Below are positions 12,980-43,767 of a stretch of DNA of 64,000 nt, in pieces (within the stretch, counting starts at the first letter, position 1; every line of letters starts with the position of its first letter). The notes beneath the pieces were generated by a model. That model was not told the DNA's origin. It saw only the letters and a program-made list of their open reading frames with translations, and made no database searches. A program made the position numbers and the translations under genes. Source of the DNA: Aeromicrobium senzhongii (lineage in GTDB: Bacteria; Actinomycetota; Actinomycetes; Propionibacteriales; Nocardioidaceae); assembly GCF_014334735.1 (NCBI RefSeq), contig NZ_CP060587.1:1798001-1862000 (forward strand), in the 5' to 3' direction.

Positions 12980-12985
12980 ACCCTA
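12980..12985 (-). promoter_or_regulatory. TAGGGT -10 box 6 nt before apeB
   Basis: TAGGGT is followed by 6 nt and the ATG, the spacing expected for a leaderless transcript. Its TAG is also the stop codon of the upstream gene, so part of the match is forced by coding; the same TAGGGT-N6-start arrangement recurs before polA and pyk. Confidence 0.35.
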
Positions 12986-13915
12986 ACGACGATTGCGGAA
13001 GTCCTCGATGGTGGCCTTCAGACCGATCTCGGCGGTGGTCGACGGGGACCAGCCGAGCAGCTCGGCGGCGAGGGTGATGTCGGGACGGCGGATCTGGGGG
13101 TCGTCGATCGGGCGCGGTACGTGGACGATCTGCGAGTCGGACTCGGCCAGGTCGCGGATCCACGTGGCCAGGTCGAGCATCGAGATCTCTTCGGGGTTGC
13201 CGAGGTTGACCGGGCCGCTGGCGCCGGACTCCATCATCGCGACGAGTCCGGACACGAGGTCGTCGACGTAACAGATGGAGCGGGTCTGGTGGCCGTCGCC
13301 GGCGACCGTGATCTCGCGTCCCATCAGGGCCTGGTGCACGAAGTTCGGGATGGCGCGGCCGTCCTCGACCCGCATCCGCGGGCCGAAGGTGTTGAAGATG
13401 CGCACGATCTTGGTGTCGACGCCGAACTCGCGGCGGTACGCCGCGGTCATCGCCTCACCGAAGCGCTTGGCCTCGTCGTAGACCGACCGCGGACCGACCG
13501 GGTTGACGTGCCCCAGGTAGGTCTCGGGCTGCGGGTGCACCTGCGGGTCGCCGTAGACCTCCGAGGTGGAGGCCAGCAGGTAGCGCGCGCCGTGGGCGTG
13601 GGCCAGGTCGAGGGTGTGCTTGACGCCCGTCGAGCCCGTCATCAGGGTGTGGATCGGCAACCGGTGGTAGTCGACCGGGGAGGCGGGAGAGGCGAGGTTG
13701 AAGACCTGGTCGAAGGGACCTTCGATCGCTTCCATCGCGGAGGCGTCGGTGATGTTCACCTCGAGGATCGTGACCTCGTGCGCCACGGCGGCGAGGTTCT
13801 CGCGCCGTCCCGTGCTGAAGTCGTCGACCACGACCACGTCGTGTCCCATCGCGACGAGCCGCTCCACCAGGTGCGATCCGACGAAACCGGCGCCGCCGGC
13901 CACCAACGCGCGCAT
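12983..13915 (-). CDS. UDP-glucuronate decarboxylase-like NAD-dependent sugar-nucleotide enzyme
   Basis: The 310-residue protein is an extended short-chain dehydrogenase. GGAGFVGSHL (7-16) binds NAD, ASTSEVYGDP (115-124) provides the catalytic Ser/Thr, and Y146xxxK150 (YDEAK) is the catalytic pair. The segments NLASPASPVDY and RIFNTFGPRM closely resemble UDP-glucuronic acid decarboxylase (UXS), which makes UDP-xylose. A dTDP-glucose dehydratase or UDP-galactose epimerase is less likely from these motifs. It would supply a pentose donor to the neighbouring glycan genes. It is 61 bp downstream of the methyltransferase pair, on the same strand, and probably ends their operon. An AAGGGAT ribosome-binding site precedes the ATG. 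Confidence 0.82.
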   Translation of the reverse strand: MRALVAGGAGFVGSHLVERLVAMGHDVVVVDDFSTGRRENLAAVAHEVTILEVNITDASAMEAIEGPFDQVFNLASPASPVDYHRLPIHTLMTGSTGVKHTLDLAHAHGARYLLASTSEVYGDPQVHPQPETYLGHVNPVGPRSVYDEAKRFGEAMTAAYRREFGVDTKIVRIFNTFGPRMRVEDGRAIPNFVHQALMGREITVAGDGHQTRSICYVDDLVSGLVAMMESGASGPVNLGNPEEISMLDLATWIRDLAESDSQIVHVPRPIDDPQIRRPDITLAAELLGWSPSTTAEIGLKATIEDFRNRR

Positions 13916-13976
13916 CAGTGCATCCCTTCGTCTGAGTCCGCCAATGTCTACTGGCGAGTAGGACTCACGTCACACC

Positions 13977-14723
13977 CTACCTCGGTGTTCGCGCCGATCG
14001 GGAGGACTTGGCGTCTTCGCGGCGCAACAGCAGCAGCAGGTTCCACGAGAGCACCTCGCGCACGACGGGCACCCGCACGAGCGGAGCGGCCCAGCGCGGC
14101 AGGTAGCGCGGGCGGGCGGCGAGGACGCGCACGTCGTCGCGGCGGCCGGACCACCGCATCCCCCACGCGACCGAGATCTTGAACAGGGTCTCGCCGACGC
14201 GGTTCTTGGGCGGGTGGCCCTCGCGACGGGTGTACCGCTCGATGGCCCGCCGGCCACCCAGCCAGTGCCACGGCGACGTCTCGTGACCGCCCCAGGGCGA
14301 CCACCAGTTCGTGTACGACAAGAAGACCAGTCCCCCGGGCCGGGCGACCCGGACCAGCTCGGCGGCGACGACCTCGGGATCGCGGACGTGCTCGAGCAGG
14401 TTGGACGAGAACACCAGGTCGGCCGAGCCGGTCGCGAAGGGCAGCAGCGCGGCATCGGCGGCGACACCACCGTCGGCCAGCGCGGAGACCTCCGGGTCGA
14501 GGTCGACCGCGACGTACCGGGCGCCCCGGCCGCGGAACTCCTGCGCGAATTGCACCGGGCCGGCGCCGACGTCGATCACGAGCTTGCCGTCGAGCGGCAT
14601 CTGCTGCTCGACCAGGTCGGCCGAGTCGCGCGCGAGCGTGCCGTAGAAGTGGTCGGGGTCGGTCTGCTCGACCAGGAAGGAACGGAACAGCCGGACCGAG
14701 CGCGCGAGTCCGTCAGGGTTCAC
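13977..14723 (-). CDS. Class I SAM-dependent methyltransferase
   Basis: The 248-residue protein carries a Rossmann SAM-binding motif, VIDVGAGPVQFAQEF (about residues 48-62), an acidic VAVDLD at the end of strand 2, and FSSNLLEHVRDPEVV of the Methyltransf_11 group. The C-terminal ~100 residues are basic and partly hydrophobic (SWNLLLLLRRED at the end), suggesting membrane contact. It probably methylates a sugar or lipid-linked glycan. The GTG start overlaps the preceding methyltransferase stop by 4 bp (GTGA), so the two are coupled and may act on the same glycan. Confidence 0.85.
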   Translation of the reverse strand: MNPDGLARSVRLFRSFLVEQTDPDHFYGTLARDSADLVEQQMPLDGKLVIDVGAGPVQFAQEFRGRGARYVAVDLDPEVSALADGGVAADAALLPFATGSADLVFSSNLLEHVRDPEVVAAELVRVARPGGLVFLSYTNWWSPWGGHETSPWHWLGGRRAIERYTRREGHPPKNRVGETLFKISVAWGMRWSGRRDDVRVLAARPRYLPRWAAPLVRVPVVREVLSWNLLLLLRREDAKSSRSARTPR

Positions 14724-15577
14724 GACGCGCCCCTGGTCGCGGTCACGACGAGCGTGGGCCGCCAGCGCGGACGGAGCAGTCGCAGCAGCGCGGCGGCCGG
14801 CGCCAGCGCCATCGCCAGCCAGCGGACCCGGCGCGAGGCCAGCACGCCGGCGGGGCGATCCTGCGGGCGCAGCCGGCGGACGAGGCTGGCCCCCTCCATC
14901 GTCAGGTTGTCGGTGAGCGAACGCGTGACGCGCACGTCGACGAAGCCGGCATCGCGCAACAGCCGCGTGATGGACTCTGCCGAGAAGAACCGCACGTGGG
15001 TGGGGTCCTCCAGCAGCCACCAGGCGTCCGAGAACGACCGCAGCGACGAGCTGTCGGCCGCCGGCGTGAGGAACAGGACCCGGCCGCCGGGTCGGAGCAA
15101 CCGGTGCGCGGCGGCCGACAGGGCGTGGACGTCCTGGACGTGCTCGACGACGTGGACCCCGTAGACCAGGTCGGCGGGCTCGGTGGACGCCGGGACCTCC
15201 TCGATGCCGCAGGCGTGCAGCTCGGCGCGCGCGAGCACCTGCGGGTCGACCTCGACGTGGAGCTGGTCGGGGTCGCAGCCGGCGACGCGATGGCCGCGGT
15301 CGAGGAAGCCGCGCAGCATGGCTCCGGCGCCGAAACCGATCTCGAACACCCGCGATCCGGGCGCCAACGGCGCCGCACGGCCGAGCGTGCGGGTGGTCAG
15401 GGCCAGCCGCACACGGTCGAGCCCCGGATCGCCGCCGTAGGCGACGTCGCGATGATGTGCCGGAGCCGCCTTGGGATCCCGCTCGATGTGAGAGCATTTC
15501 GGACAGGTCCCGAGCACCGAACGCCCGTCCCGCAAGGTCACGGACGTCGTCGGTGTGGAACACACCTCACAGGACAT
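14720..15577 (-). CDS. Zinc-ribbon class I SAM-dependent methyltransferase
   Basis: The 285-residue protein starts with a four-cysteine zinc ribbon (C3, C6, C25, C28), then a SAM-binding fold with VFEIGFGAGAML as motif I and a VYGVHVVEHVQD segment. The layout matches the sugar C-methyltransferase/Methyltransf_23 type enzymes of surface-glycan clusters, where an N-terminal zinc module is common. The C-terminal ~60 residues are basic and hydrophobic, so it may sit on the membrane. Start ATG at 15577 with GAGGGGG upstream. It is divergent from the GT4 glycosyltransferase gene with only 42 bp between them, and it overlaps the next methyltransferase gene by 4 bp. Confidence 0.85.
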   Translation of the reverse strand: MSCEVCSTPTTSVTLRDGRSVLGTCPKCSHIERDPKAAPAHHRDVAYGGDPGLDRVRLALTTRTLGRAAPLAPGSRVFEIGFGAGAMLRGFLDRGHRVAGCDPDQLHVEVDPQVLARAELHACGIEEVPASTEPADLVYGVHVVEHVQDVHALSAAAHRLLRPGGRVLFLTPAADSSSLRSFSDAWWLLEDPTHVRFFSAESITRLLRDAGFVDVRVTRSLTDNLTMEGASLVRRLRPQDRPAGVLASRRVRWLAMALAPAAALLRLLRPRWRPTLVVTATRGAS

Positions 15578-15619
15578 CGGGACCCCCTCGGACGGACAGG
15601 AGAGAACGCTATCAGCGGA

Positions 15620-16723
15620 TTGCGCATCGCCATCCTCAGTTGGCGTGACCTGGAGCATCCCGAGGCCGGCGGCGCGGAGGTGTTCGCCGAGCGGACGGCC
15701 GCGACCATGGCCCAGCGGGGCCACGACGTGGTTCTGTTCGCCTCCTCGTTCCCGGGTGGAGCCGCCCACGCGCGGCGGCACGGATTCGCGATCGCCCGCG
15801 CCGGAGGGCGCTTCACCGTCTACCCGCGCGGCCTGTGGCACGTGTGGCGACGCCGCCGGGACTACGACATCGTCCTCGACGTCCAGAACGGCGTGCCGTT
15901 CTGGACTCCCCTGATCTTCCCCCGGCCCGTGCTGGCCGTCGTCCACCACGTGCACCGCGAGCAGTGGTTCACCTTCTTCCCCCGGCCCATCTCCTCGATC
16001 GGCTGGTTCCTCGAGTCGCGGGTCGCGCCGTTCGTGTACCGCCGCCAGCGCTACGTCACCGTCTCCGAGGCCTCGCGACGCGAGCTCGCTGCCGTCGGCG
16101 TCGACCCCACGAGGGTCTCGGTCGTCTACAGCGGCAACGAGGCGCCGCAGCACGTGCTCGACGGCGAGCCCGATCCGGTCCGCGGCACACGGCTCGCGTG
16201 CCTGGGCCGCTTGGTCCCCCACAAGCGGGTCGAGCTGGCGATCGACGCCGTCGCGGCCCTACGCGACACGTTCGAGGACATCGGCCTCGACGTCATCGGC
16301 GGAGGCGACTGGATGGACCCCCTCGTCGAGCACGCACGCGCGCGCGGCGTCAGCGACCGGGTGGTGTTCCACGGCCACGTCTCCGACGAGCAGAAGCACG
16401 CGCTGCTGAGCCGGGCCGCCGTCCTGGCCATGCCCTCGATCAAGGAGGGATGGGGCCTGACCATCCTCGAGGCCGGCTACCACGCCGTGCCGACCGTGGC
16501 GTTCCGTTACGCCGGCGGCACGCAGGAGTCGGTGCAGGACGGTCACACCGGGCTTTTGGTGGACACCGACGAGGAGTTCATCGACGGGCTCCGCCACCTG
16601 CTGCTCAAGACGGACGAGCGGGCCAAGCTCGGAGCCGCCGCGCGCGAGTTCGCGCTCCGCTTCGACTGGCAGCGCACCGGCAACGAGCTGACCGACCTGG
16701 TCGAGCAGGTCGCCCGCCCCTGA
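15620..16723 (+). CDS. GT4 family glycosyltransferase with unusual start
   Basis: The protein (367 residues from TTG) is a GT-B fold glycosyltransferase. The N-terminus RIAILSWRDLEHPEAGGAEV carries the acceptor-side loop of GT4 enzymes, VVYSGNE precedes the interdomain hinge, and EGWGLTILEAGYH is the donor-phosphate E-x7-E motif. It would transfer a sugar to a lipid-linked acceptor at the cytoplasmic face. No ATG or GTG exists near the conserved N-terminus. The only standard start is TTG at 15620, 17 nt from the AGGAG (15598-15602). A non-standard ATC at 15611 is in frame at the ideal 8-nt spacing and would give MSGLRIAIL-like sequence. A strong terminator follows the stop. Confidence 0.87.
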   Translation: MRIAILSWRDLEHPEAGGAEVFAERTAATMAQRGHDVVLFASSFPGGAAHARRHGFAIARAGGRFTVYPRGLWHVWRRRRDYDIVLDVQNGVPFWTPLIFPRPVLAVVHHVHREQWFTFFPRPISSIGWFLESRVAPFVYRRQRYVTVSEASRRELAAVGVDPTRVSVVYSGNEAPQHVLDGEPDPVRGTRLACLGRLVPHKRVELAIDAVAALRDTFEDIGLDVIGGGDWMDPLVEHARARGVSDRVVFHGHVSDEQKHALLSRAAVLAMPSIKEGWGLTILEAGYHAVPTVAFRYAGGTQESVQDGHTGLLVDTDEEFIDGLRHLLLKTDERAKLGAAAREFALRFDWQRTGNELTDLVEQVARP

Positions 16724-16744
16724 CCCGGTCGAACCGGACACGAG

Positions 16745-16778
16745 AGAGCCGCCGCCCCCCGAAGGGGACGGCGGCTCT
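16745..16778. terminator. Bidirectional hairpin terminator
   Basis: AGAGCCGCCGCCCCC (16745-16759) pairs with GGGGACGGCGGCTCT (16764-16778) across a CGAA loop with one mismatch, followed by TTGTTCT on the plus strand. It separates the convergent GT4 and DUF3068 genes. Confidence 0.8.
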
Positions 16779-16799
16779 TGTTCTCGGTGCGGTGGTCCG

Positions 16800-17795
16800 T
16801 CAGGCGTTCGCGTACGCGTCGTCGTCGGCGTCGGCGCCGTGACGACTCTTGAACCGGATGGCCAGAGCAGCACCGGCCAGCAGCGACAGGATCCCCAGGC
16901 CGCCGATGGCGAACGGGAGCCAGGTGCGCACGGCCTTGAGGGTCGTGGACTTGGAGCCGTACTCGTCGATGTTGGCCTGGATCGTCTCGGGCGAGGACGC
17001 GCTGACCGTGTCCATCGCGACGACGTCGTCGGCGCCGGGCTCATCGAGCTTCAGCCACTGCTTCTGGGCCTCTTCGATCTTGACCATGACGCCGGTCTCG
17101 GGCTCGACCCAGATGGTGCGGTCGTTCGCGTAGGTGCGGGTGGCCTCGACCGAGCCGGTGTCGGCCAGGCCGAACACGCCACGGGGAACCTCGCGGATGC
17201 CGAACTCGGTCTCGTCGATCGAGCCGCTGAAGCGGTAGGTGTTGATCGAGCCGTCGGTGCCCTCGACCTCTTCGGTGCCCTCGAACTCCATCTTCATCGG
17301 AGCCTTGACCGTCGCGTCCCAGTAGTCGTAGCTCTTCTTCTGGGTGTTGAACGGGAACTTGATCAGCTGACCCTCGAACTCGATCGGCTCGCCGTTCTGC
17401 GAGGCGCCGGACCACGGCACGGCCGCACCGGTGTACCGGTCGATCGCGAAGGTCTGCTCGAGGAAGTCGACCGGCGGGGCCTGGTCGTTGTTGTCGGTGC
17501 TCTGACCCTTGGTGAACACGGCGATGTCGCCGCCGTCGTTCTCGTCGGCGGCCTCCTTGGCCAGGTCGGGATCGCCGATGACGGTCGCGATGGTGGTGAT
17601 CGGACCCGAACCCGGCGCCACGTTGTCGGCGTCGAAGAAGTTCGCGTTGTCGTCACTGAGGATCTGCTGGGTGTTCTGGTCCTTGGGGACCACAGCCAGG
17701 CGGTCGTACGCGTATACCTTCATCGCGACGCCCAGGGTGAGCAGGAACGCTCCGAGCGTCAGGAACGCCACGGCGCCACGAGAGAACTTCCGCAC
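16800..17795 (-). CDS. DUF3068 (PorA-family) membrane protein
   Basis: The 331-residue protein has an N-terminal transmembrane segment (about 9-29), a large extracytoplasmic beta-rich domain, and a second segment near 295-315 followed by an acidic cytoplasmic tail. The pattern, with the MKVYAYDRLAVVPKDQN start of the outer domain, matches DUF3068, annotated in some databases as 'PorA family' although no pore function is shown. The family is restricted to actinobacteria and usually sits near envelope-polysaccharide genes. GTG start with GGAGG upstream. A TACGAT -10 and a perfect palindrome CTCTCGCGAGAG lie upstream, so the gene is probably transcribed alone and regulated. Function unknown. Confidence 0.88.
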   Translation of the reverse strand: MRKFSRGAVAFLTLGAFLLTLGVAMKVYAYDRLAVVPKDQNTQQILSDDNANFFDADNVAPGSGPITTIATVIGDPDLAKEAADENDGGDIAVFTKGQSTDNNDQAPPVDFLEQTFAIDRYTGAAVPWSGASQNGEPIEFEGQLIKFPFNTQKKSYDYWDATVKAPMKMEFEGTEEVEGTDGSINTYRFSGSIDETEFGIREVPRGVFGLADTGSVEATRTYANDRTIWVEPETGVMVKIEEAQKQWLKLDEPGADDVVAMDTVSASSPETIQANIDEYGSKSTTLKAVRTWLPFAIGGLGILSLLAGAALAIRFKSRHGADADDDAYANA

Positions 17796-17821
17796 AAGTG
17801 CCTCCGAACTAGGGTCTTGCC

Positions 17822-17851
17822 ATCGTATTTGTGAGTTACCTCTCGCGAGAG
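17822..17851 (-). promoter_or_regulatory. Promoter and palindromic operator candidate of the DUF3068 gene
   Basis: TACGAT (17822-17827 on the minus strand) is a TANNNT -10 box about 27 nt before the GTG. The 12-bp perfect palindrome CTCTCGCGAGAG (17840-17851) covers the place where the -35 would be, a position typical of a repressor or activator site. Confidence 0.4.
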
Positions 17852-17865: not shown

Positions 17866-18435
17866 TCATGTCAGGTGCGAAACCCTACCGATGAGTACGT
17901 CGGCGATCCGCGAGGGCTCCAGACCGGTCCGGCCGACATCCAACCAGGCGACTCCGGCGGCCCGCGCCGCCGCCTCGTCGCTGGGCTGGTCGCCGACCAT
18001 CACGACCCGTTCAGGGCGGGCCCACGGCGCCCGCGTCATCGCGTGCAGCAGCATCCCGGGCAGCGGCTTGCGACAGTCGCACGTGCCGGTCTCGTGCGGG
18101 CAGACCTCGATGCCGTCCAGCCGCCCACCGGCGCGGCCCAGCCGCGACACGAGCGCGCGGTGCACCTGCACCAGCTGCTCGCGCGTGAGCCGGCCCGTGG
18201 CCAGACCTCGCTGGTTCGTCACCAGGACCGTCCGGATCCCGGCACCCGTCAGGTCCGCCACCGCGCGGGCCACACCGGGCCGCAACCGCAGCTCGGCCGC
18301 GGACGCGATGTACCCGGGGCGATGGACGTTGAGCGTCCCGTCACGGTCGAGCAGGACGAGGTCCCACGGGACGGGGCCCGAGGGAGGCGGGATCGGCGTG
18401 TCGTCGAGTCCCAGCAGCGCCTCGTCGGTCCACAT
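17866..18435 (-). CDS. gmhB: D-glycero-D-manno-heptose 1,7-bisphosphate 7-phosphatase
   Basis: The 189-residue HAD phosphatase removes the 7-phosphate of heptose bisphosphate, giving heptose 1-phosphate. HAD motifs are clear: D30-x-D32 in LLDRDGT, T73 in VTNQ, K123, and D149/D153 in GDQPSD. The zinc loop CPHETGTCDC (C112, H114, C119, C121) is the hallmark of GmhB against histidinol phosphatase. About 25 extra residues precede the catalytic domain. It starts 2 bp after the gmhA stop, forming the end of a compact hddA-gmhA-gmhB operon for nucleotide-activated heptose. Confidence 0.9.
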   Translation of the reverse strand: MWTDEALLGLDDTPIPPPSGPVPWDLVLLDRDGTLNVHRPGYIASAAELRLRPGVARAVADLTGAGIRTVLVTNQRGLATGRLTREQLVQVHRALVSRLGRAGGRLDGIEVCPHETGTCDCRKPLPGMLLHAMTRAPWARPERVVMVGDQPSDEAAARAAGVAWLDVGRTGLEPSRIADVLIGRVSHLT

Positions 18436-18437
18436 CG

Positions 18438-19091
18438 TCAGGCGGAGCCGTTGGGCTGCGACAGGACGTCGACCGCCTCGCACCACGCGTGGGCCCACAG
18501 CATGTGGACCTCCTGGATCCGCGGCGTGAAGTCCGACGGCACGTGCAGCACGTGGTCCGCCCGGCCCGGCAGGTCGCCACCGGCCGCACCGGTGAGCGCG
18601 ACGGTGCCGAGGCCGCGCTCGCGCGCGGCGTCGAGTGCGCGCAGGATGCTCTCGCTGCGGCCGCTGGTGGACATCGCGATCAGCAGGTCGCCGGGACGCC
18701 CGAGCGACTGGACGCCCCGGACGAACACGTCGTCGAACCCGTAGTCGTTGCCCACGGCGGTGATCGAGGTCAGCGAGTCCGCGAGGCAGACCGCCGGCAG
18801 CGGCGAGCGGTCGAGGATGCACTTGCCGACGAACTCGGCGGCGATGTGGCTGGCGATCGCGGCACTGCCGCCGTTGCCGGCGACCAGGATGGTGCCGCCC
18901 GCGCGCAGGGTGTCGACGACCGCACGACCGGCCGCGTCGACGGCCGCGACGAGCGCCGGCTCCTCGAGCGCACGGACCAGCGACGCCCAGGCCTCGATGC
19001 CGAGCGTCTGGCGTTGGGCGACGACCTGCTCGATCGCGTCATCGGACACGGCGTGCACCGGGTGCTCGAACGTCAACTCTGTCCCCTCCAC
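18438..19091 (-). CDS. gmhA: Sedoheptulose 7-phosphate isomerase (SIS domain)
   Basis: The 217-residue SIS-domain enzyme converts sedoheptulose 7-phosphate to D-glycero-D-manno-heptose 7-phosphate, the entry step to bacterial heptose donors. VAGNGGSAAIASHIAAEF (70-87) and AMSTSGRSESIL are the two phosphosugar loops. H82/E86 and the C-terminal EVHMLWAHAWCE, with its active-site histidine, fit GmhA better than other SIS proteins. The GTG at 19091 overlaps hddA by 19 bp. A TTG at 19078, whose codon ends inside a TTGA overlap with the hddA stop, is an alternative start that would drop five residues. It is coupled to hddA and gmhB. Confidence 0.9.
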   Translation of the reverse strand: MEGTELTFEHPVHAVSDDAIEQVVAQRQTLGIEAWASLVRALEEPALVAAVDAAGRAVVDTLRAGGTILVAGNGGSAAIASHIAAEFVGKCILDRSPLPAVCLADSLTSITAVGNDYGFDDVFVRGVQSLGRPGDLLIAMSTSGRSESILRALDAARERGLGTVALTGAAGGDLPGRADHVLHVPSDFTPRIQEVHMLWAHAWCEAVDVLSQPNGSA

Positions 19092-20155
19092 GTGACCAGC
19101 CCTTCCCTCGAGAACGTGAACTCCGAGACACCCAACCCCATCCGGGTCAGCTCCTCGGCCACGACGTGACGACGCTCGAACTCGCAGATGAAGACCAGGT
19201 GGCCGCCACCACCGGCGCCGGTGACCTTGCCGCCGAGCGCGCCCAGCGACAGGGCCTTGGTGATGGCCTCGTCGATGAGCGGCGTCGCGATGCGGTCCGA
19301 CATCTTGCGCTTCTCGTCCCAGGCCTGGCCCAGCAGGCGCCCGAGCGTGTCGACCTCGCCGCGGACGAGCGCCAGTTTCATCTCGGCGGCGAGCTCCTTT
19401 TGGGCGCGTAGGCCCTCGAGTGCCGTTTCCTCACCGCGCTCGTACCGCGAGACCTGGTCGTCGATGATGTGGTCGCTGACCCGGGTGTTGCCCGTGTAGG
19501 CCAGCAGCATGTTGTGCTCGAGCTCGTGGATCGTCGCATCGCGGATGCGCAGCGGGTTGACGACGACCTGGTCGGCGAACTCGATGTAGTTGAAGCCGCC
19601 GAACGACGCGGCGTACTGGTCCTGGGCGCCACCGGGGATCTGCAGGTCCTCGCGCTCGAGCCGGTACGCCAGCTCGGCGACCTCGTACTCGGTGAGGTCC
19701 AGTCCCAGGTGCTGGGCCACGACCCCGATGACGGCCACCATGACCGCGCTCGACGAACCGAGGCCGGAACCGGGCGGGGCGTTGGTGTGGATGAACAGGT
19801 CGAAGCCCGTGGCCGCCTGGGCGCCGGGGTACTGCCGCAGCCGCGCGATCGTGGCCTTCGGCAGGTCGAGCTGTCCGTCGAGCTCGAGGTCGTCCTCGAC
19901 GTTGAAGCCGACCGAGTAGCCGTAGTCGAGGGACTTGATCGTGACCTGGCCGTCCGAGCGCGGGCGCAGGGTGCAGTAGGAGTAGGCCGAGATGGTGGCC
20001 GACAGGACGGCGCCGCCCTCGCGCTCGGGGAACGGCGCGACGTCCGTGCCGCCTCCGGCGAACGAGATGCGCAACGGCGCGCGGGCCCTCAACACGGGCC
20101 GGCGGACGTCGGCCGTGACCGGTTCGGGTGACACCAGATGGGACTGCTGTGTCAT
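19073..20155 (-). CDS. hddA: D-glycero-alpha-D-manno-heptose 7-phosphate kinase (GHMP kinase)
   Basis: The 360-residue GHMP kinase phosphorylates heptose 7-phosphate at O-1. RAPLRISFAGGGTDVAPF (24-41) is the N-terminal substrate motif of the HddA/FKP-like branch. PPGSGLGSSSA (127-137) is the ATP-binding GHMP loop, and GKVTGAGGGGHLVFI is the C-terminal motif. The GHMP kinase type, rather than bifunctional HldE, points to the alpha-anomer GDP-heptose route and not the ADP-heptose route of lipopolysaccharide. TGGAGG lies 11 nt before the ATG. It is first in its operon and divergent from a membrane acyltransferase gene; the 87-bp gap holds a 7-bp inverted repeat. Confidence 0.92.
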   Translation of the reverse strand: MTQQSHLVSPEPVTADVRRPVLRARAPLRISFAGGGTDVAPFPEREGGAVLSATISAYSYCTLRPRSDGQVTIKSLDYGYSVGFNVEDDLELDGQLDLPKATIARLRQYPGAQAATGFDLFIHTNAPPGSGLGSSSAVMVAVIGVVAQHLGLDLTEYEVAELAYRLEREDLQIPGGAQDQYAASFGGFNYIEFADQVVVNPLRIRDATIHELEHNMLLAYTGNTRVSDHIIDDQVSRYERGEETALEGLRAQKELAAEMKLALVRGEVDTLGRLLGQAWDEKRKMSDRIATPLIDEAITKALSLGALGGKVTGAGGGGHLVFICEFERRHVVAEELTRMGLGVSEFTFSREGLVTWRGQS

Positions 20156-20181
20156 CCGTACTAGCCTCCAGACGTGATGCG

Positions 20182-20197
20182 GCGCCCGAACGGGCGC
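20182..20197. repeat. Inverted repeat in the hddA/acyltransferase divergent promoter region
   Basis: GCGCCCG (20182-20188) and CGGGCGC (20191-20197) are perfect inverted 7-mers with an AA between. A TAGGTT -10-like box for hddA is at 20209-20214 on the minus strand, so the repeat lies in the early hddA leader. It could be an operator or a leader hairpin. Confidence 0.35.
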
Positions 20198-20242
20198 AAT
20201 GCGACGACAACCTACCCGATTCTCACTGAACCCGGAGGCTTC

Positions 20243-37376: not shown

Positions 37377-39337
37377 CGCGTCCCCGCCCTCGAGGCGTGG
37401 TCGCGCACACGGGGCGCGAGCCACGTCCAGACCATCGCGGCGCCCTCGTCGGAGAAGTGCAGCTGATCGCCGTACAGGTTCACCCCGTTGACCTCGGGAC
37501 GGAAGCCCTCCGAGCACTCGAGCACCTCGTAGAGGTCCAGGACCGCGACGTCCCGATCGCGCGCCCAGGCCCGGATCCAGGAGTTGACGACCTTCGGGTC
37601 GGAGGTCGCCTCGGCGACGTCCGGATGGGCCTCGAAGTAGGTGCGCAACGCCGGCGCCTGGCCCTGGCGGCCGTCGATCCGGCACGGCACGGTGGCGATC
37701 TGCGGCGTGACACCGGCACTCTCGGCCTGGGCGACCAGTCCGTCCAGGGCCTCCTCGACGGCTCGGCGGTAGGGCCGGTCCTGAAGCCACCACACCTCAC
37801 CCTCGGGCGAGTAGTGCGGGATCGAGATCAAGGTGCCCAGCACCATCACCACGGTGTCGGCGTCCAGGTCGCGCAGCCGCTCCCCCAGGTTCGTCCAGCT
37901 GCGACGGCACTCGGCGTCCGGCGCACCGCCGAGCTCCTCGTTCCAGGCCGGCTTGAGGTCGACCACGTCGCACCCGGGCACCGCCAGGCCGCTCACGAGC
38001 AGATCGGGATAGTCCGCCGACGGGAAGTACGTGACGAGGTTGTCGGCGACGGAGTCGCCGTAGAACGCGATCCGCGTGGGCTTCTCGCGCGGGTCGTAGG
38101 CCGCGCTGCCCGCGACCAGCGGCGGCACGTCCACCGAGCGGCCACCGACCTGCGAAGCCGTGGCGCCCACCTGGCCCACGGCCAACGCGACCAGGACGAC
38201 GCCGAGCGGCGCGGCGACGGCGACCCGCCCGGGTCGGCGCAGGCGCGGCAGCAGGCCACGGACACCGCGGCGCATGACCGGCTCCTCGATCCACCGGTAG
38301 CTGGCGGCGGCAGCGGCGATCGAGATCGCCAGGACGACCGGTGCCGCGACCCAGACCGGGGCGGTCGGGAAGGCCTGGCCGAACCACACGGTGAGCGGCC
38401 AGTGGAAGAGGTAGAGGCCGTAGCTGCGCACGCCGAGGTAGGCCAAGGGCGCCCAGGAGAGGACCCGACCGGCCGAGCCTCCGACGCCGTGCGCGAGAGG
38501 CAGGATGAGCAGACCGACCACGATCGCCTGCAGCAGCAACCCGCCGCTGAGGAACATGAACGGCTCCATCGGCTCCACGACGACCAACAGGGCCAGCGCC
38601 GTGGCGAGCATCGTCCAGGCCAGCACCGGACCGCAACGGCGCAGCACCGCCGGCGTGCGGTCCCGCCACCCGTCGTCGATGAACGCCACCAGCATGCCGA
38701 TGAGCAGCGACTGCGCTCGCGTGTCGGTGCCGTAGTACGCATGGGCGATGGCCGACGCGTCTCCGAGGCCCACTTGGGCGGTCCACCAGGCCGACCCGAC
38801 GGCGGCCAGGGCCAGGACGACCATCGCGACGCGGCGACGCATCAGCGCGAGGATCGCCAGCAACAGCGGGACGCACAGGTAGAACTGCTCCTCGACCGAG
38901 AGCGTCCAGGCGTGCCGCAACAGTGACGGGGAGCCGAATGTCGAGAAGTACTGATCGGCGTCGAGCACCAGTCGCCAGTTCATGACGAACCCCAGGCTGG
39001 CCAGCATGTCGCCGCGCAGCTGGCGGCGCGCGAACTCGTCCGCGACGAGGAGCCCACACACGCCCAGGGCCAGCAACAACAGGATCAGCGCGGGCATCAG
39101 TCGCCGGGCGCGCCGCCGGTAGAAGCCCGGGACGTCGACACCGCCGAACCGGCGCCGCTCGCGCAGGAGCAGCCGGGTGATGAGGTAGGCCGACAGGACG
39201 AAGAACAGGCTCAGCCCCGTCCACGCTCCGTCCAGCCCCGGCACCCCGAGGTGGTAGAGCATGAACAGCAGCATGAAACCGCCGCGGATCCCGTCCAGGG
39301 CGGTGACCCGGCCGCGCTGCGGCGGGGCGCTGGTCAT
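37373..39337 (-). CDS. OafA-type membrane acyltransferase fused to SGNH hydrolase domain (2)
   Basis: The 654-residue protein has the same two-part design as its downstream neighbour: LDGIRGGFMLLFMLYHLG in helix 1, RRRARRLMPALI, WTLSVEEQFYLCVP, then an SGNH domain with FYGDSVADNL, VMVLGT, and the GDQLHFSDEG dyad. The two are similar through most of their length, which suggests tandem duplication followed by divergence, perhaps to acylate different positions. The ATG at 39337 is chosen because it overlaps the hddC-like stop by 4 bp; a GTG two codons upstream (39343) is possible. Operon with hddC. Confidence 0.92.
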   Translation of the reverse strand: MTSAPPQRGRVTALDGIRGGFMLLFMLYHLGVPGLDGAWTGLSLFFVLSAYLITRLLLRERRRFGGVDVPGFYRRRARRLMPALILLLLALGVCGLLVADEFARRQLRGDMLASLGFVMNWRLVLDADQYFSTFGSPSLLRHAWTLSVEEQFYLCVPLLLAILALMRRRVAMVVLALAAVGSAWWTAQVGLGDASAIAHAYYGTDTRAQSLLIGMLVAFIDDGWRDRTPAVLRRCGPVLAWTMLATALALLVVVEPMEPFMFLSGGLLLQAIVVGLLILPLAHGVGGSAGRVLSWAPLAYLGVRSYGLYLFHWPLTVWFGQAFPTAPVWVAAPVVLAISIAAAAASYRWIEEPVMRRGVRGLLPRLRRPGRVAVAAPLGVVLVALAVGQVGATASQVGGRSVDVPPLVAGSAAYDPREKPTRIAFYGDSVADNLVTYFPSADYPDLLVSGLAVPGCDVVDLKPAWNEELGGAPDAECRRSWTNLGERLRDLDADTVVMVLGTLISIPHYSPEGEVWWLQDRPYRRAVEEALDGLVAQAESAGVTPQIATVPCRIDGRQGQAPALRTYFEAHPDVAEATSDPKVVNSWIRAWARDRDVAVLDLYEVLECSEGFRPEVNGVNLYGDQLHFSDEGAAMVWTWLAPRVRDHASRAGTR

Positions 39338-40038
39338 CGCCACGCCTGACGGGCCCGCTCGAGGGCGTCGGGGGTGCCGACGTCGAGGAAGGGCGCGTCA
39401 TCGCGGTGGGCGCGCACGTCCGAGTCGGCGGCCAGACCGGGGAAGACGTCGACCTCGAGGGAGAGCGGCACCGTGTCGGGCAGGTCCAGCAGGACCGAGC
39501 CGCGCATCACGTACGTGCCGGCGTTCACCAGACCCGGCGCGGCGATCCGCGGCTTCTCGCGGAACCCGCGGATCCGGGTCCCGGAGTCGTCGAGAGAGAC
39601 CACGCCGTAGGGGCGGGCGTCGTCGACCTCGCGGACGTGGATCGAGACATCGGCGCCCGAGCGCTCGAAGGCGTCGATCTGGGCCGCGAGGTCGTGGGCC
39701 GACAGCAGGTCGCCGTTGACGACCACGACCGTGTCGCCGGGGGCGACGGCAGCGCGGGCCGCGAGGGCCAACGCACCGCCCGTGCCGAGCGGCTGCTGCT
39801 CGCGGCTGTAGGTCAGCCGCACGTCCCAGCGCGAGCCGTCGCCGAGCTCGTCCTGCACCTGCTGCGCGCCGAAGCCGGCGGCGATCACGATGTCGGGCAC
39901 ACCGGCAGCGGCCAGCCGTCGGAGTTGATGGGCCACGAGCGGCTCTCCCCCGACGTCGACCAGAGGCTTGGGCAGGTCGCCGACAGCGGGCCTCAGCCGG
40001 GTCCCCAGACCCCCCGCCAGGACGATCGCTCGTCGCAC
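39334..40038 (-). CDS. hddC: Sugar-1-phosphate nucleotidyltransferase, HddC-like (GDP-heptose forming)
   Basis: The 234-residue protein has the nucleotidyltransferase signature AGGLGTRLRP (8-17) with the catalytic Lys24 (LPKPL), a VVNGDLL metal site, and GFREKP and LVNAGTYV further on. Length and motifs place it with HddC/RmlA-like enzymes such as D-glycero-alpha-D-manno-heptose 1-phosphate guanylyltransferase. Because gmhA, hddA and gmhB are present 19 kb away and no other such enzyme is seen, I assign it the final step to GDP-heptose. It could instead make GDP-mannose or dTDP-glucose. GTG start; it heads an operon with two acyltransferases and a methyltransferase. Confidence 0.75.
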   Translation of the reverse strand: MRRAIVLAGGLGTRLRPAVGDLPKPLVDVGGEPLVAHQLRRLAAAGVPDIVIAAGFGAQQVQDELGDGSRWDVRLTYSREQQPLGTGGALALAARAAVAPGDTVVVVNGDLLSAHDLAAQIDAFERSGADVSIHVREVDDARPYGVVSLDDSGTRIRGFREKPRIAAPGLVNAGTYVMRGSVLLDLPDTVPLSLEVDVFPGLAADSDVRAHRDDAPFLDVGTPDALERARQAWR

Positions 40039-40092
40039 AGATCCCTGCCTTAACTCTTGGTTACCCGCGCGTACGCACGGCGCTGGTCATAG

Positions 40093-40098
40093 TAGTAT
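40093..40098 (+). promoter_or_regulatory. -10 box of a leaderless transcript
   Basis: TAGTAT is a strong -10 hexamer and ends 7 nt before the ATG at 40106, with no Shine-Dalgarno between. It selects that ATG over the in-frame ATG at 40097, which would lie inside the box. The -35 is weak. Confidence 0.55.
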
Positions 40099-40105
40099 GC
40101 GTCAC

Positions 40106-40567
40106 ATGCTCGACGACTCCGATGTGCGTTCTCGACCCCTGCCCAACCTGGGGACGAAGGTCGCGATCCTCGCCGCCATCCCCTTCCTGGCGTACGGGAT
40201 CTACCTGCTGCTGACGCCGATCACGGACATCCAGACCAGCTCCGGAGCCATCTTCGAGTGCGGGTCCGCCCTGCAGCCGCCCTCGGACGACTTCCAGGCA
40301 GGCGTCTGCGGCCCGATCAACACGCAGTACCTGTACCGGAGCATCGCGGCGATCGCCGCGGCCGTGGGCATCGCCGGCGTCGGCGCCATGCTGTTCGGCT
40401 TCAGCCACCAGGTCGAGCGTGCCGTCAGCCGTTCCGAGACCGGCGCAGCCGGCACCGGTGACGAGGCGCAGCGTCTGTCCCGCGAGGACGACCAGCGCTT
40501 CTCCCGCGAGGACGACTACTACGCCGACGGCGGCGCCCGCCGGCGACTCCTCGACGACGGTCGCTGA
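40106..40567 (+). CDS. Two-helix membrane protein of unknown function
   Basis: The 153-residue protein has a short basic N-terminus, a helix at about 17-35 (VAILAAIPFLAYGIYLLL), an outer loop of about 40 residues with two cysteines (FECGSAL and GVCGPIN) that could form a disulfide, a second helix at about 76-97, and a charged cytoplasmic tail. The tail contains a near-exact repeat RLSREDD/RFSREDD. I do not recognise the family. It lies between the hddC operon (divergent) and an acyltransferase gene 27 bp downstream, so a role in the same glycan pathway is possible. The start follows from the leaderless-type promoter. Confidence 0.7.
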   Translation: MLDDSDVRSRPLPNLGTKVAILAAIPFLAYGIYLLLTPITDIQTSSGAIFECGSALQPPSDDFQAGVCGPINTQYLYRSIAAIAAAVGIAGVGAMLFGFSHQVERAVSRSETGAAGTGDEAQRLSREDDQRFSREDDYYADGGARRRLLDDGR

Positions 40568-40594
40568 GGACGGCGGTAGCCGCCCGCCCGTTCG

Positions 40595-42535
40595 ATGACG
40601 CACCCCATCGCACCGCCGCGCGCGCGGCTGCCCTACCGCCCGGCCCTCGACGGCCTGCGAGCGGTGGCGATCGCCGGTGTCCTGGTGTTCCACCTGGACG
40701 AGAGCCTGCTGCCCGGCGGCTGGCTCGGGGTCGATCTGTTCTTCGTCCTGTCGGGCTTCCTGATCACCCACCTGCTCATGGCCGAGCAGGACCGCTGGGG
40801 CCGCATCAGCGTCGTGCGGTTCTGGGGCGCCCGCATGCGCCGGCTGCTTCCCTCGCTGCTGACCGTGCTGCTCGCGGTGGCGGCCGCGGCGTGGATCTGG
40901 ACCGTGCCGGGTCGCCGATCCGCGGTCGCGTGGGACATCGTCTCCTCCTTGTTCTATGTGTCGAACTGGCGGTTCATGCTCGGCGACGAGCAGTACTTCG
41001 ACCAGCTCTCGCTGCCCTCCCCGGTGCGGCACACGTGGTCCCTGTCCATCGAGGAGCAGTTCTACATCGTCTTCCCGCTGCTGCTGATCGCCGTGGGCGT
41101 CATCGCCCGGACGCGGTACCGACAGGCCGCGGTGTTCGTCGCCCTGGCCGTCGCCTCGGCCGGTGCCATGGCGTACGGCTACCTCCATGGCGCTGAGATC
41201 ACGGACCTGTACTACAGCACCTTCACCCGCGCCTTCGAGCTGTTGATCGGGGTGTGCGCCGCGCTCGTCCTGGGCCGGTCCGCCTTCGCCGAGCGTCGGG
41301 CCTCCCCCGCACGCGACGTCCTGGCGTGGGGCGCGCTCGCGGCGGTCGTCGCTGCAATGCTCCTGCTCGATTCGAACTCCGGCGTGGTCTTCACCGGGGG
41401 TCTCGTCGTGGTGTGCCTGGCGGCCCTCGTCACGATCCTGGCGGCTGCGGGCGGGCGGCCCGGCACGTTCACGACGGTCCTGGGCAGCCCGGTCCCCCGC
41501 TTCATCGGACTCATCAGCTACCCGTTGTACCTGTGGCACTGGCCGATCATCGTGTTCCTGCGTCCCGGCACGACCGCCCTGGACGGTGTCGCGCTGGACC
41601 TCGTCCGGGTCGGCCTCGCGGTCCTGCTGGCCTGGCTCACCTACCGCTTCATCGAGGCGCCGATCCGCGGCCGCCGTCCGATGATCACGTCGCTGCGCGG
41701 TGTGTCCCGGGTCGTCACGGTCCTCGCCGCGCCGTTGGTGGTGGCCGGTGCGGTCGTCGTCGCCCACTCCGAGCCGCTCGACCGCGGCCTCGTCGCCCAG
41801 CACAGCGACTCCGATGCGCCACCGCTCGTGCTCACGCCCGAGCCCTACACCGCCGAGGCGCGGCGTTCGGCCATGTTGCTGGGCAACTCGATCCCGTTCA
41901 GCCTGTACCGGAACGTCGCGACGCACGAGTTCCGCCAGCTCTCCCTGAGCCAGAGCACGCATCTGGGGTGCGATCCGTTCGAGTTGCAGAAGGTCGTCGA
42001 CGGCAAGCCCACCGAGCCGACCCGCAGCTGCCTGCAGTGGCGTGAGGAATGGCCCGAGACGGTCAAGGCGAACCGACCCGACGTACTGTTGTTCTTCGTG
42101 CCCCAGACCTTCGTTTCGGACCTCGTGCGCGACGGCGATGTCGCCGAGTTCGGCACCGTTGAGCACACCGAGCTGATCCGGGACGGGCTCGACCAGGTGG
42201 CCGCACGCGCGACGGGCGCCCGCAGCCTCGCGTTGTCGACGCTGGCGTGCCATGACATCCCCGCGTTCGACATCGTCGAGATGCAGCAGTTGAACGACGT
42301 CGACCGGGTCAAGCAGGTCAACGCGGTCGTGACGGACTGGGCACGCGAGAACGACGTGCCCGTCGTGGACTCCTTCGGCGCCCTGTGCTCCGACGGCTAC
42401 CGCCCGATGCTGGGCGACGATCCCCTGTACGAGGACGGGCTGCACTTCACCACCGAGTCCGCTCCGCTCGTGTGGGCCTGGATGATGCCCCAGGTCCTGC
42501 GCTTCGCCGACGCGGCCCACGGGGAGGCGCCATGA
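40595..42535 (+). CDS. OafA-type membrane acyltransferase with variant SGNH domain (GNS) (3)
   Basis: The 646-residue protein has the acyltransferase-3 membrane module (LDGLRAVAIAGVLVFHLDES, GWLGVDLFFVLSGFLI, WSLSIEEQFYIVFPLL, YPLYLWHWPIIV) and a C-terminal SGNH-like domain. Unlike the two sister proteins its nucleophile motif reads LLGNSIPFSLY, with Asn replacing the Asp of GDS; the serine and the terminal DGLHF dyad remain. The domain may still work or may bind glycan. It is followed by a flippase gene overlapping by 4 bp, so acylation and export are probably coupled. No strong Shine-Dalgarno is seen before the ATG; it is 27 bp from the previous gene. Confidence 0.92.
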   Translation: MTHPIAPPRARLPYRPALDGLRAVAIAGVLVFHLDESLLPGGWLGVDLFFVLSGFLITHLLMAEQDRWGRISVVRFWGARMRRLLPSLLTVLLAVAAAAWIWTVPGRRSAVAWDIVSSLFYVSNWRFMLGDEQYFDQLSLPSPVRHTWSLSIEEQFYIVFPLLLIAVGVIARTRYRQAAVFVALAVASAGAMAYGYLHGAEITDLYYSTFTRAFELLIGVCAALVLGRSAFAERRASPARDVLAWGALAAVVAAMLLLDSNSGVVFTGGLVVVCLAALVTILAAAGGRPGTFTTVLGSPVPRFIGLISYPLYLWHWPIIVFLRPGTTALDGVALDLVRVGLAVLLAWLTYRFIEAPIRGRRPMITSLRGVSRVVTVLAAPLVVAGAVVVAHSEPLDRGLVAQHSDSDAPPLVLTPEPYTAEARRSAMLLGNSIPFSLYRNVATHEFRQLSLSQSTHLGCDPFELQKVVDGKPTEPTRSCLQWREEWPETVKANRPDVLLFFVPQTFVSDLVRDGDVAEFGTVEHTELIRDGLDQVAARATGARSLALSTLACHDIPAFDIVEMQQLNDVDRVKQVNAVVTDWARENDVPVVDSFGALCSDGYRPMLGDDPLYEDGLHFTTESAPLVWAWMMPQVLRFADAAHGEAP

Positions 42536-43767
42536 ACCGCTCGACCCGCGCCACCGTCTCCAGCGGCTCGATCGTCGCCGTCGCGATGATGGTGATGAAC
42601 GTCGCCACCTACGGCTTCAACCTGCTCGCCGCCCGCCAGCTGGTTCCCGCCGAGTTCGGCGCCCTCACCGCCTTGTTGAGCCTCACCCTCATCGCCAACG
42701 TCGTCGCGCTGGGACTGCAGGCCTCCATCGCCCGCCGGATCTCGGTCCGTCCCGGGCAGACCATCCAGATCGTGCACACCGCGTCGCGGGTCGCCCTGGC
42801 GCTGTCCCTGCTGGTGGGCCTGGCCACCGCCCTGTCCAGCCCGATCCTGACCCCCGCATTCTCGTTCGACTCGGTGTGGGCCGTCATCTGGTGTGGGGCG
42901 ATGCTCGTGCCGCTGACCCTGGCTGGCGCCCAACTGGGCGTCGCGCAGGGCACGGGACGCTGGGGGAAACTGGCCGCGCTCTACCTCGGCAACGGGTTCG
43001 GCCGCCTCTTCGGCGGCTTGGCCGGCCTGGCGATCGAACCGACCGCGACGAACGCGATGATGGGGCTGGCGATCGGATCGTGGCTGCCGGTCATCTTGGG
43101 CATGGGACTGCTCAAGGCCACCGGCGGCGGCGATGCCCACAGCCGCCGGCCGCTCGTCTTCGAGACCGTGACATCGGCGTCGACACTGCTGGCCTACTTC
43201 GCCTTCAGCAACGTCGACGCCCTGATCGCCCGCGGCGGCTTCGACGCCCACGACAGTGGCCTCTACGCGTCGGGCCTGATCCTGACCAAGTCCACGCTCT
43301 TCCTGCCGCAGTTCGTCAGCGTCGTGTTCTTCCCGAGCCTCGCGCGCGACTCCAGCCACCGCACACGCCTGCGCGCCGTGGGTCTCGTGGCCCTGCTGGG
43401 CGTGGCGGTCGTCGCGGGCGCCGCCGTTCTGCCGAAGCTGGCGCTCATCCTGGTCGGCGGCGACCAGTACGCGGAGATCACCGGCGACCTGTGGCTCTTC
43501 GCCGTCTCGGGCACCTTCCTGGCGATCGTCTACCTGCTGGTGTTCGACGCGCTGGCACGGCGCGAGGGCGGCGTGGCCGTGCTGGTGTGGATCGCAACGG
43601 CCACGGTCTTCTGCGTCGCGTACTTCAACCGGATCGGCATCGTCGGCCTGGTGACGACGATGGCCATCACTGCCGCCGCCCTCTCGGCCGTCCTGCTGGT
43701 GTGGCCGCTGATCCGCCGCACTCCCGAGCCGAAGCAGACCGAGGTGACCGAGCCACCCGTCCCCTGA
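42532..43767 (+). CDS. Polysaccharide flippase (MATE/MOP superfamily, Wzx-like), second copy
   Basis: The 411-residue protein has about 12 helices and the flippase start motif, NLLAARQLVPAEFGALTALL. It shares the overall pattern with the 33308-34495 flippase, including 'D.HDSG.YA..' in the middle (AHDSGLYASG against DHDSGGYALA). Two flippases suggest two lipid-linked intermediates. The ATG overlaps the acyltransferase stop by 4 bp (ATGA). It ends 3 bp from the convergent polA and is the right edge of the envelope cluster. Confidence 0.9.
   Translation: MNRSTRATVSSGSIVAVAMMVMNVATYGFNLLAARQLVPAEFGALTALLSLTLIANVVALGLQASIARRISVRPGQTIQIVHTASRVALALSLLVGLATALSSPILTPAFSFDSVWAVIWCGAMLVPLTLAGAQLGVAQGTGRWGKLAALYLGNGFGRLFGGLAGLAIEPTATNAMMGLAIGSWLPVILGMGLLKATGGGDAHSRRPLVFETVTSASTLLAYFAFSNVDALIARGGFDAHDSGLYASGLILTKSTLFLPQFVSVVFFPSLARDSSHRTRLRAVGLVALLGVAVVAGAAVLPKLALILVGGDQYAEITGDLWLFAVSGTFLAIVYLLVFDALARREGGVAVLVWIATATVFCVAYFNRIGIVGLVTTMAITAAALSAVLLVWPLIRRTPEPKQTEVTEPPVP

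What the first reader, a model, noticed from the sequence alone, without database searches (positions are those of the whole stretch)
12983..43767. A 31-kb envelope-glycan cluster lies between rpsA and polA and may make an undescribed heptose polymer
Within this stretch nearly every gene fits one pathway: UXS-like enzyme, four heptose genes, three methyltransferases, three glycosyltransferases, three GT-C type proteins, four membrane acyltransferases, two flippases. In M. tuberculosis polA (Rv1629) and rpsA (Rv1630) are adjacent. Here the flanking order pyk, pdtaR, polA ... rpsA, coaE is kept but opened by this block. I know of no described actinobacterial polymer made by this combination. The insertion could be ancient in the family.
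Basis: partly seen in the sequence, partly recalled or inferred. Interest (0 to 1): 0.75.

Follow-up and report, generated by a model that had tools for sequence, protein, structure and literature searches.

The report
Swappable actinobacterial envelope-sugar locus
Between two housekeeping genes of a soil actinobacterium lies a cell-surface sugar locus whose core matches machinery so far described mainly from the tuberculosis and diphtheria group, and in this lineage most of it seems to have been exchanged by horizontal transfer for a version with genes for a rare seven-carbon sugar.

Summary
Its reading as a new insertion does not. The core (PgfA/LmcA, TmaT-like acyltransferase, AftD, MtrP-like methyltransferase, GT4, MmpA, Wzx-like flippase) is the locus known from mycobacteria and corynebacteria. 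It lies between rpsA and polA in 25 of 25 fetched genomes with both flanks in view (9 family codes; all picked for having MmpA). Of 92 MmpA genomes in a 246-genome class sample, 71 lack the Emb arabinan polymerase. In the window, 12983-42535 is a divergent allele nearest to Dermacoccus/Janibacter-type loci, while flipB, polA, M18 and rpsA are native: horizontal cassette replacement. Among 34 Aeromicrobium-group genomes with AftD, 9 carry hddA (exactly the 9 with a second AftD over cut-off), 10 carry DprE1, none both. So the locus seems to swap sugar supply, arabinose-type or heptose-type, on shared machinery. Most likely product: a methylated, acylated envelope glycan with heptose and xylose, built on lipid carriers and finished outside by GT-C enzymes. 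The polymer is inferred, not shown.

The parts
9975..11432 (-). rpsA, conserved flank (native)
   Evidence: 91% to a same-genus copy, 78% to the Janibacter-type copy
11723..12973 (-). M18 aminopeptidase, native flank
   Evidence: Pfam M18; 69% to same-genus G003, no hit in the fetched Dermatophilaceae-type loci, most of which do not reach this far
12983..13915 (-). UDP-glucuronate decarboxylase (UXS)-like SDR, UDP-xylose supply
   Evidence: 325 bits to 4gll and 2b69, UDP-glucuronate decarboxylase 1
13977..14723 (-). MtrP-like methyltransferase (core)
   Evidence: Methyltransf_11; in 32 of 41 MmpA-centred regions
14720..15412 (-). second methyltransferase (cassette)
   Evidence: Methyltransf_23
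15620..16723 (+). GT4 glycosyltransferase (core; same neighbour of MmpA and the MtrP-like gene in Mycobacteriaceae-type genomes G269 and G220)
   Evidence: in 39 of 41 regions
16800..17795 (-). PgfA/LmcA, periplasmic lipid-binding protein (core)
   Evidence: NF053601 229 bits over cut-off 160; solved LmcA 7n3v E 2.5e-10
17866..18435 (-). GmhB-like heptose-bisphosphate phosphatase
   Evidence: NF006506 124 bits, below its cut-off 178; HAD motif DRDGT invariant in 10 rows
18438..19091 (-). GmhA-like sedoheptulose-7-phosphate isomerase
   Evidence: TIGR00441 162 bits, below its cut-off 209
19073..20155 (-). HddA, heptose-7-phosphate kinase (start inferred from the translation)
   Evidence: NF049969 279 bits, below its cut-off 600; solved HddA-type kinases 3k85 E 1e-80 and 4n3o
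20174..21433 (+). TmaT-like membrane acyltransferase (core), ORF extent
   Evidence: Acyl_transf_3 1e-21; in 34 of 41 regions
21333..25208 (-). AftD (core), GT-C with CBM
   Evidence: PF11847 545 bits; mycobacterial AftD 6wbx E 2e-98
25465..27183 (-). MmpA (core), GT-C fold
27180..28289 (-). GT4 glycosyltransferase (cassette)
   Evidence: 72% to a Janibacter locus
28300..29115 (-). GT2 glycosyltransferase (cassette); candidate for loading the lipid carrier
   Evidence: donor role inferred only
29108..33193 (-). AftD2, divergent second AftD-family GT-C with F5/8C module (cassette)
   Evidence: PF11847 186 bits; no PDB sequence match; 25 loci with relatives
33371..34495 (+). flipA, flippase of the same family as flipB (cassette); start uncertain
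   Evidence: flipB profile also matches the flipA genes of related loci; no Pfam
34502..35335 (-). Methyltransf_24 methyltransferase (cassette)
35391..37376 (-). acyltransferase-SGNH (cassette)
   Evidence: weak SucT similarity, 85 bits with cut-off 1275
37373..39343 (-). acyltransferase-SGNH (cassette)
39334..40038 (-). HddC/GMPP-like nucleotidyltransferase
   Evidence: mannose-1-phosphate guanylyltransferase 8yre E 3e-40 and 6-deoxy-D-manno-heptose pathway protein 6jq8 E 2e-28; NF049965 98 bits, below its cut-off 300
40106..40567 (+). small protein of unknown function (cassette)
   Evidence: no family; weak matches in related loci
40595..42535 (+). acyltransferase-SGNH, last gene of the exchanged cassette
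   Evidence: SucT-like N-terminal half 147 bits with cut-off 1275
42532..43767 (+). flipB, Wzx-type flippase (core, native)
   Evidence: model pLDDT 94, WzxE 9g9p E 3e-8 TM 0.77; 54% to same-genus G003, 32% to the best Dermatophilaceae-type match
43771..46431 (-). polA, conserved flank (native)
   Evidence: polA tree

Best explanation
The block is a heptose-type allele of a class-wide actinobacterial envelope-glycan locus that sits between rpsA and polA. SHOWN by sequence: (1) a conserved core of PgfA, TmaT-like acyltransferase, AftD, MtrP-like methyltransferase, GT4, MmpA and Wzx-like flippase, homologous to the corynebacterial/mycobacterial locus, in lineages without Emb; (2) a cassette of about 29.5 kb (12983-42535) in which every gene is nearer to Dermacoccaceae/Dermatophilaceae-type loci than to three same-genus genomes without the cassette, between native flanks, so it was exchanged horizontally at the same site (direction not tested); (3) within the genus the locus carries either the heptose genes plus a second AftD, or in some genomes DprE1, never both in the genomes searched. 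[quoted passage not shown] cytoplasmic GT4/GT2 enzymes build a lipid-linked oligosaccharide; methyl groups are added; Wzx-type flippases turn it over; outside, the GT-C enzymes (AftD, AftD2, perhaps MmpA) extend or decorate it from polyprenyl-phosphate sugars, PgfA handles the lipid-bound intermediate, and the acyltransferases esterify it. The sugar supply differs between alleles: arabinofuranose where UbiA-like DPPR synthase and DprE1/E2 lie in the locus, heptose (and xylose) here.
For: Core and position: (both flanks seen in 25 of 41 regions, each with 4-7 of the 7 core genes between rpsA and polA). Distribution in one 246-genome class sample: MmpA 92, AftD 120, PgfA 118 over cut-off, Emb 21, all 21 in one family code. 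That family is Mycobacteriaceae-like: the AftD of one member, G269, scores 1900 bits to the solved mycobacterial AftD. Horizontal exchange: per-gene identities; polA keeps the genus together (support 94, not starred), while MmpA rejects it (dlnL 198, p-AU 4e-57), as do AftD (2e-7), PgfA (0.003) and GT4 (0.008) under a simpler model. Sugar swap: hddA in 9 of 49, DprE1 in 10 of 49, AftD in 34 of 49, second AftD over cut-off in the same 9 as hddA. DPPR synthase, DprE1 and DprE2 homologues lie in the MmpA-centred region of G021, G061, G067, G144, G254, G262 and G335. No DprE1, Emb or MptB match in the own genome. Folds: MmpA GT-C, flipB WzxE. Propionibacteriales and Intrasporangiaceae descriptions state that mycolic acids are absent (PMC6113628, passages). 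DprE1/E2 homologues mark Araf in three-component systems (PMC11127046, passages).
Against: No chemistry: no heptose, xylose or arabinose has been measured. hddA/DprE1 exclusion is weak as statistics (0 of 34 shared, P 0.025 without correcting for relatedness), and 15 of the 34 AftD genomes have neither. DprE1 homologues are common in the class (87 of 246 at E 1e-20, many in families without MmpA), so DprE1 is not a mark of this locus alone. G138 has a heptose locus and a DprE1 homologue elsewhere on the same contig. PgfA does not put the heptose loci in one clade (p 9e-20, 7 rows), so the locus is mosaic. GmhA, GmhB, HddA and HddC all score below the curated NCBIfam cut-offs. G064 (same genus) lacks AftD and PgfA matches and its MmpA match is in two pieces, and G038 (same family) has no match to any of the three, so the core is dispensable; 15 of 49 genomes of the genus have no AftD match. 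The 41 regions were chosen because they hold MmpA.
Confidence: 0.66

Rival explanations
1. The cassette makes a conventional Wzx-dependent capsular or wall polysaccharide containing heptose, and AftD, MmpA and PgfA only sit beside it, serving a separate lipoglycan.
For: Two Wzx-type flippases, several GT4/GT2 enzymes, acyltransferases; in C. glutamicum genes of this locus serve two different pathways (PMC8698533, passages).
Against: AftD, MmpA and GT4 of the heptose loci group together apart from the same-genus copies, and a second AftD comes with hddA in 9 of 9 genomes of the genus. No Wzy polymerase family turned up among the block proteins searched against Pfam.
Confidence: 0.2
2. The AftD enzymes still add arabinofuranose and heptose is a minor decoration.
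For: AftD1 is a clear AftD with the PDTKLDL motif shared with the solved AftD.
Against: No DprE1 match in the own genome at E 1e-20 in two searches and no Emb; DPA-pathway homologues were found in the locus only in other alleles.
Confidence: 0.1
3. The locus is a recent insertion that split an adjacent polA-rpsA pair.
For: In the 3 Mycobacteriaceae-type and 6 f18 genomes fetched, neither rpsA nor polA is within view of the core.
Against: Core genes lie between rpsA and polA in 25 of 25 genomes with both flanks in view, 9 family codes.
Confidence: 0.04

Closest known systems
tmaT/mtrP/mmpA/lmcA(pgfA)/aftD locus of Corynebacterineae (PMC8698533, PMC9678360, PMC6034362, PMC8972800; passages seen)
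   Same: Same protein families, PgfA and MmpA above curated cut-offs, AftD E 2e-98; in Mycobacteriaceae-type genomes G269 and G220 the order MTase-GT4-MmpA-PgfA-AT3-AftD is seen.
   Different: Here in an order described as lacking mycolic acids, between rpsA and polA, with a Wzx-type flippase and no Emb. PMC8698533 states that MmpA has no homologues outside corynebacteria/mycobacteria, which these data contradict; that the PgfA family (DUF3068) occurs in actinobacteria at large was already in print (PMC9678360).
[quoted passage not shown] tuberculosis GmhA/HddA/GmhB/HddC scheme in PMC7705670, passages)
   Same: All four enzyme types are present.
   Different: Placed inside an AftD/MmpA locus with UXS and a second AftD; scores below equivalog cut-offs, so a divergent branch.
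Three-component pentofuranose systems (PMC11127046, passages)
   Same: Lipid-phosphate sugar donor and GT-C enzyme with CBM; DprE1/E2 plus DPPR synthase occur in sister alleles.
   Different: In the heptose allele no DprE1, DprE2 or DPPR synthase homologue was found in the locus.
O-antigen/capsule loci with swappable central genes between conserved flanks (recalled, no call)
   Same: Conserved flanks, exchanged cassette, changed sugar supply.
   Different: Core GT-C and lipid-handling genes are exchanged together with the sugar genes, and the host belongs to the Actinomycetes.

Membership tests
tmaT/mmpA/pgfA/aftD envelope locus | PgfA, MmpA, AftD, TmaT-like AT3 and MtrP-like MTase together | tested here: met
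   TmaT and MtrP by family, profile match in Mycobacteriaceae-type genomes and position only, no comparison with the named proteins
tmaT/mmpA/pgfA/aftD envelope locus | Role in trehalose-mycolate acetylation and transport | not testable with these tools
   Order described as lacking mycolic acids (PMC6113628); Emb absent in own genome; Pks13 and FadD32 not searched genome-wide
AftD arabinofuranosyltransferase | GT-C domain with Asp after the first helix, and CBM | tested here: met
   AftD1: D30 and D34 in 98% and 96% of 55 rows, CBM_AftD hit
AftD arabinofuranosyltransferase | Decaprenyl-phosphoryl-arabinose donor available (DprE1) | tested here: not met
   no DprE1 match at E 1e-20 in G000; so fold and family are AftD, arabinose transfer is doubted
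GDP-heptose pathway | GmhA, HddA, GmhB, HddC all encoded | tested here: met
   each below its NCBIfam cut-off, so met by homology, not by curated threshold
GDP-heptose pathway | Enzyme activity and product | not testable with these tools
   needs biochemistry
GT-C fold (MmpA) | GT-C transmembrane fold with a conserved acid after the first helix | tested here: met
Mycobacterial LM/LAM synthesis | MptB mannosyltransferase | tested here: not met
   NF038066: 0 of 1 in own genome, C. glutamicum control positive

The most novel reading that the evidence does not exclude
The rpsA-polA locus is an ancestral, serotype-like envelope-glycan locus of Actinomycetes from which the mycolate-export helpers TmaT, MmpA and PgfA were recruited later; in its heptose alleles the AftD-family GT-C enzymes have changed donor and transfer heptose from a polyprenyl-phosphate carrier, and MmpA is itself a glycosyltransferase rather than a transport helper.
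Probability: 0.28. Interest if true: 0.88.

Novelty: new variant of a known kind. Interest (0 to 1): 0.72.

Why it matters
MmpA, PgfA and AftD are studied as parts of the mycobacterial and corynebacterial envelope, MmpA and PgfA chiefly for trehalose-mycolate transport. Finding the same set in many actinobacteria without Emb, among them an order described as lacking mycolic acids, suggests that their original task was something else, and gives harmless organisms in which to find it. The arabinose-type and heptose-type alleles at one site would be a natural swap experiment on donor choice by AftD-family enzymes, and would show how closely related soil bacteria can change surface sugars by exchanging one cassette.

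Tried and rejected
Rejected: a lone insertion between polA and rpsA; Emb-type arabinan synthesis in the own genome; canonical LM/LAM through MptB. MMPL proteins: 9 matched stretches in the own genome, but no MmpL3 assignment was made. Pfam for the two flippases, and for the 608-aa extra protein of the G003 locus, gave no family over its cut-off. A sequence match of AftD2 to solved structures gave nothing. Composition shows only somewhat higher GC in parts of the block and was not used.

Papers (listings only unless passages are named elsewhere): PgfA, 43 papers, 20 listed; AftD, 38, 20 listed; heptose with actinobacterial wall terms, 123, 20 listed; heptose with Janibacter, none; arabinofuranosyltransferase with Nocardioides, 1, a metagenome paper; lipoglycan distribution terms, 349, 12 listed; Aeromicrobium with cell-wall sugars, 1 taxonomic paper; LmcA, 3; DprE1/AftD/Aeromicrobium terms, 119, 12 listed. 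These cover only the held open library, so prior notice of this locus outside the mycolate group cannot be excluded.

All genus and family readings of G codes are inferences: own genus = Aeromicrobium, because G345 contig 17 and an A. flavum record have the same length (75282); G260 = Janibacter melonis (1298592); G219 = Dermacoccus abyssi (307416). That 4gll/2b69 are human proteins is recalled and not claimed.

In trees, short rows were dropped (MmpA under 300 or 350, polA under 600, GT4a under 280, PgfA under 220, AftD1 under 900 residues, AftD1 then cut to its first 650), and of the 25 named loci I offered 12 by name to the trees and 10 to those (a locus entered only where the gene was found). 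The per-gene comparison used three same-genus and two same-family genomes and 21 Dermatophilaceae/Dermacoccaceae-type loci, most of which do not reach rpsA.

Full report
WHAT IS THERE. The block runs from a UXS-like SDR (12983) to a flippase (43767). It holds four heptose genes, three methyltransferases, two GT4 and one GT2 enzyme, three GT-C-type membrane proteins, four Acyl_transf_3 proteins and two flippases. One of the three GT-C proteins is MmpA (25465-27183), 366 bits against a cut-off of 210.

THE CORE IS A KNOWN LOCUS. PgfA, MmpA, AftD, an AT3 acyltransferase and an MtrP-position methyltransferase next to a GT4 make up the locus described in corynebacteria and mycobacteria. There TmaT, MtrP and MmpA act in trehalose-corynomycolate acetylation and transport, LmcA/PgfA in lipoglycan synthesis or mycolate transport, and AftD in arabinan synthesis (PMC8698533, PMC9678360, PMC6034362, PMC8972800; passages). 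AftD1 matches the solved mycobacterial AftD at E 2e-98 and PgfA matches solved LmcA at E 2.5e-10. TmaT and MtrP are assigned by family, profile and position, not by a direct comparison with the named proteins.

IT IS CLASS-WIDE. In 117 genomes of the order, 55 have MmpA over cut-off. In a sample of 246 genomes of the class, MmpA is over cut-off in 92, AftD in 120, PgfA in 118, and the Emb arabinan polymerase in 21. All 21 Emb genomes belong to one family code, one member of which (G269) has a mycobacterial AftD (1900 bits to 6wbx), and all 21 also have MmpA over cut-off; so 71 of 92 MmpA genomes lack Emb. PMC8698533 says that MmpA has no homologues outside corynebacteria and mycobacteria (passage); these counts contradict that. 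That the PgfA family occurs in actinobacteria at large was already printed (PMC9678360, passage). The order of the window's genome and the family of Janibacter are described as lacking mycolic acids (PMC6113628, passages).

POSITION. I fetched about 40 kb around MmpA from 41 genomes (some contigs shorter) and searched them with profiles of the window's proteins. Present: GT4 39, PgfA 38, AftD 37, AT3 34, flippase 33, MtrP-like 32 of 41. Both rpsA and polA are in view in 25; in all 25, four to seven of the seven core genes lie between them, over 9 family codes. In the Mycobacteriaceae-like (3) and f18 (6) genomes neither flank is in view. The sample was chosen for MmpA, so it says nothing about genomes without it. 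G064 (same genus), G038 (same family) and the 15 of 49 genomes of the genus without an AftD match show that the locus can decay or be absent.

THE HEPTOSE CASSETTE WAS EXCHANGED. A scan of named genomes with an AftD2 alignment found 25 loci: Aeromicrobium flavum (89%) and otherwise Janibacter, Flexivirga, Luteipulveratus, Allobranchiibius, Dermacoccus, Metallococcus, Leekyejoonella, Knoellia, Phycicoccus and MAGs. polA is in view in 15 of the 25. Gene by gene, everything from the SDR to AT3c (12983-42535) is nearer to those loci than to three same-genus genomes without the cassette, many genes having no match there at all, while flipB, polA, M18 and rpsA are nearer to the same-genus genomes; the margin for PgfA is small against a same-family genome (207 to 196 bits). 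The polA tree keeps the genus together (support 94, not starred). The MmpA tree puts the window's clade among the Dermacoccaceae/Dermatophilaceae-type loci (15 rows, 100), and the genus as one clade is rejected (dlnL 198, p-AU 4e-57). AftD1 (2e-7), PgfA (0.003) and GT4a (0.008) agree on that rejection under a simpler model. Against a simple single-block history, PgfA does not unite the heptose loci (p 9e-20), whereas GT4a does (16 rows, 99) and AftD1 does without strong support (88). The direction of transfer was not tested.

TWO SUGAR SUPPLIES. In 49 genomes of the genus AftD is found in 34, hddA (E 1e-40) in 9 and DprE1 (E 1e-20) in 10. The hddA genomes are exactly the 9 with a second AftD over cut-off (G364 has a further match below cut-off). 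No genome has both hddA and DprE1; 15 AftD genomes have neither. The chance of no overlap is 0.025 without correcting for relatedness, so this is suggestive only. In three non-heptose genomes of the genus (G021, G061, G067) and in G144, G254, G262 and G335, homologues of DPPR synthase, DprE1 and DprE2 lie in the MmpA-centred region; 15 of the 78 regions searched carry hddA (two of them one record, L111 and G345) and none of these carries DprE1 (many of the 78 are partial). G155 has only a weak DprE1 match (26%), G082 and G085 only the DPPR synthase, and G138 has a DprE1 homologue elsewhere on its heptose-locus contig. DprE1 homologues are also widespread outside this locus (87 of 246). DprE1/E2 homologues mark arabinofuranose in comparable systems (PMC11127046, passages). 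The own genome has no DprE1, Emb or MptB match.

VERDICT. The reading as an undescribed insertion is replaced by: a heptose-type allele, horizontally exchanged, of a class-wide envelope-glycan locus so far described in mycolate-bearing bacteria.

Noticed in passing
38095-38186 (-): ARAGORN calls a tRNA-Ala (cgc) inside the reading frame of an acyltransferase gene; probably a false call.
   Followed up: no
47405-52705: A run of five genes between polA and pdtaR; the last, 51443-52705, which I labelled a branched-chain amino-acid binding protein by guess (no family search), has matches near polA in many of the relatives.
   Followed up: no
G064 C1:1362365-1363906 (same genus): MmpA matches in two pieces in one frame and no AftD or PgfA match in the genome: perhaps a decaying copy of the locus.
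   Followed up: no
L011:9842-11665: A 608-aa protein between PgfA and AftD in the G003 locus, with similar-looking unassigned genes at that place in G021 (three) and G109 (one), without any Pfam match; possibly another GT-C.
   Followed up: partly
G138 C93: Heptose locus and a DprE1 homologue about 100 kb apart on one contig.
   Followed up: no
f18 genomes G254, G309, G324: Two PgfA copies near MmpA and AftD, with neither rpsA nor polA in view; in G254 also with DPPR synthase-DprE1-DprE2 homologues.
   Followed up: no
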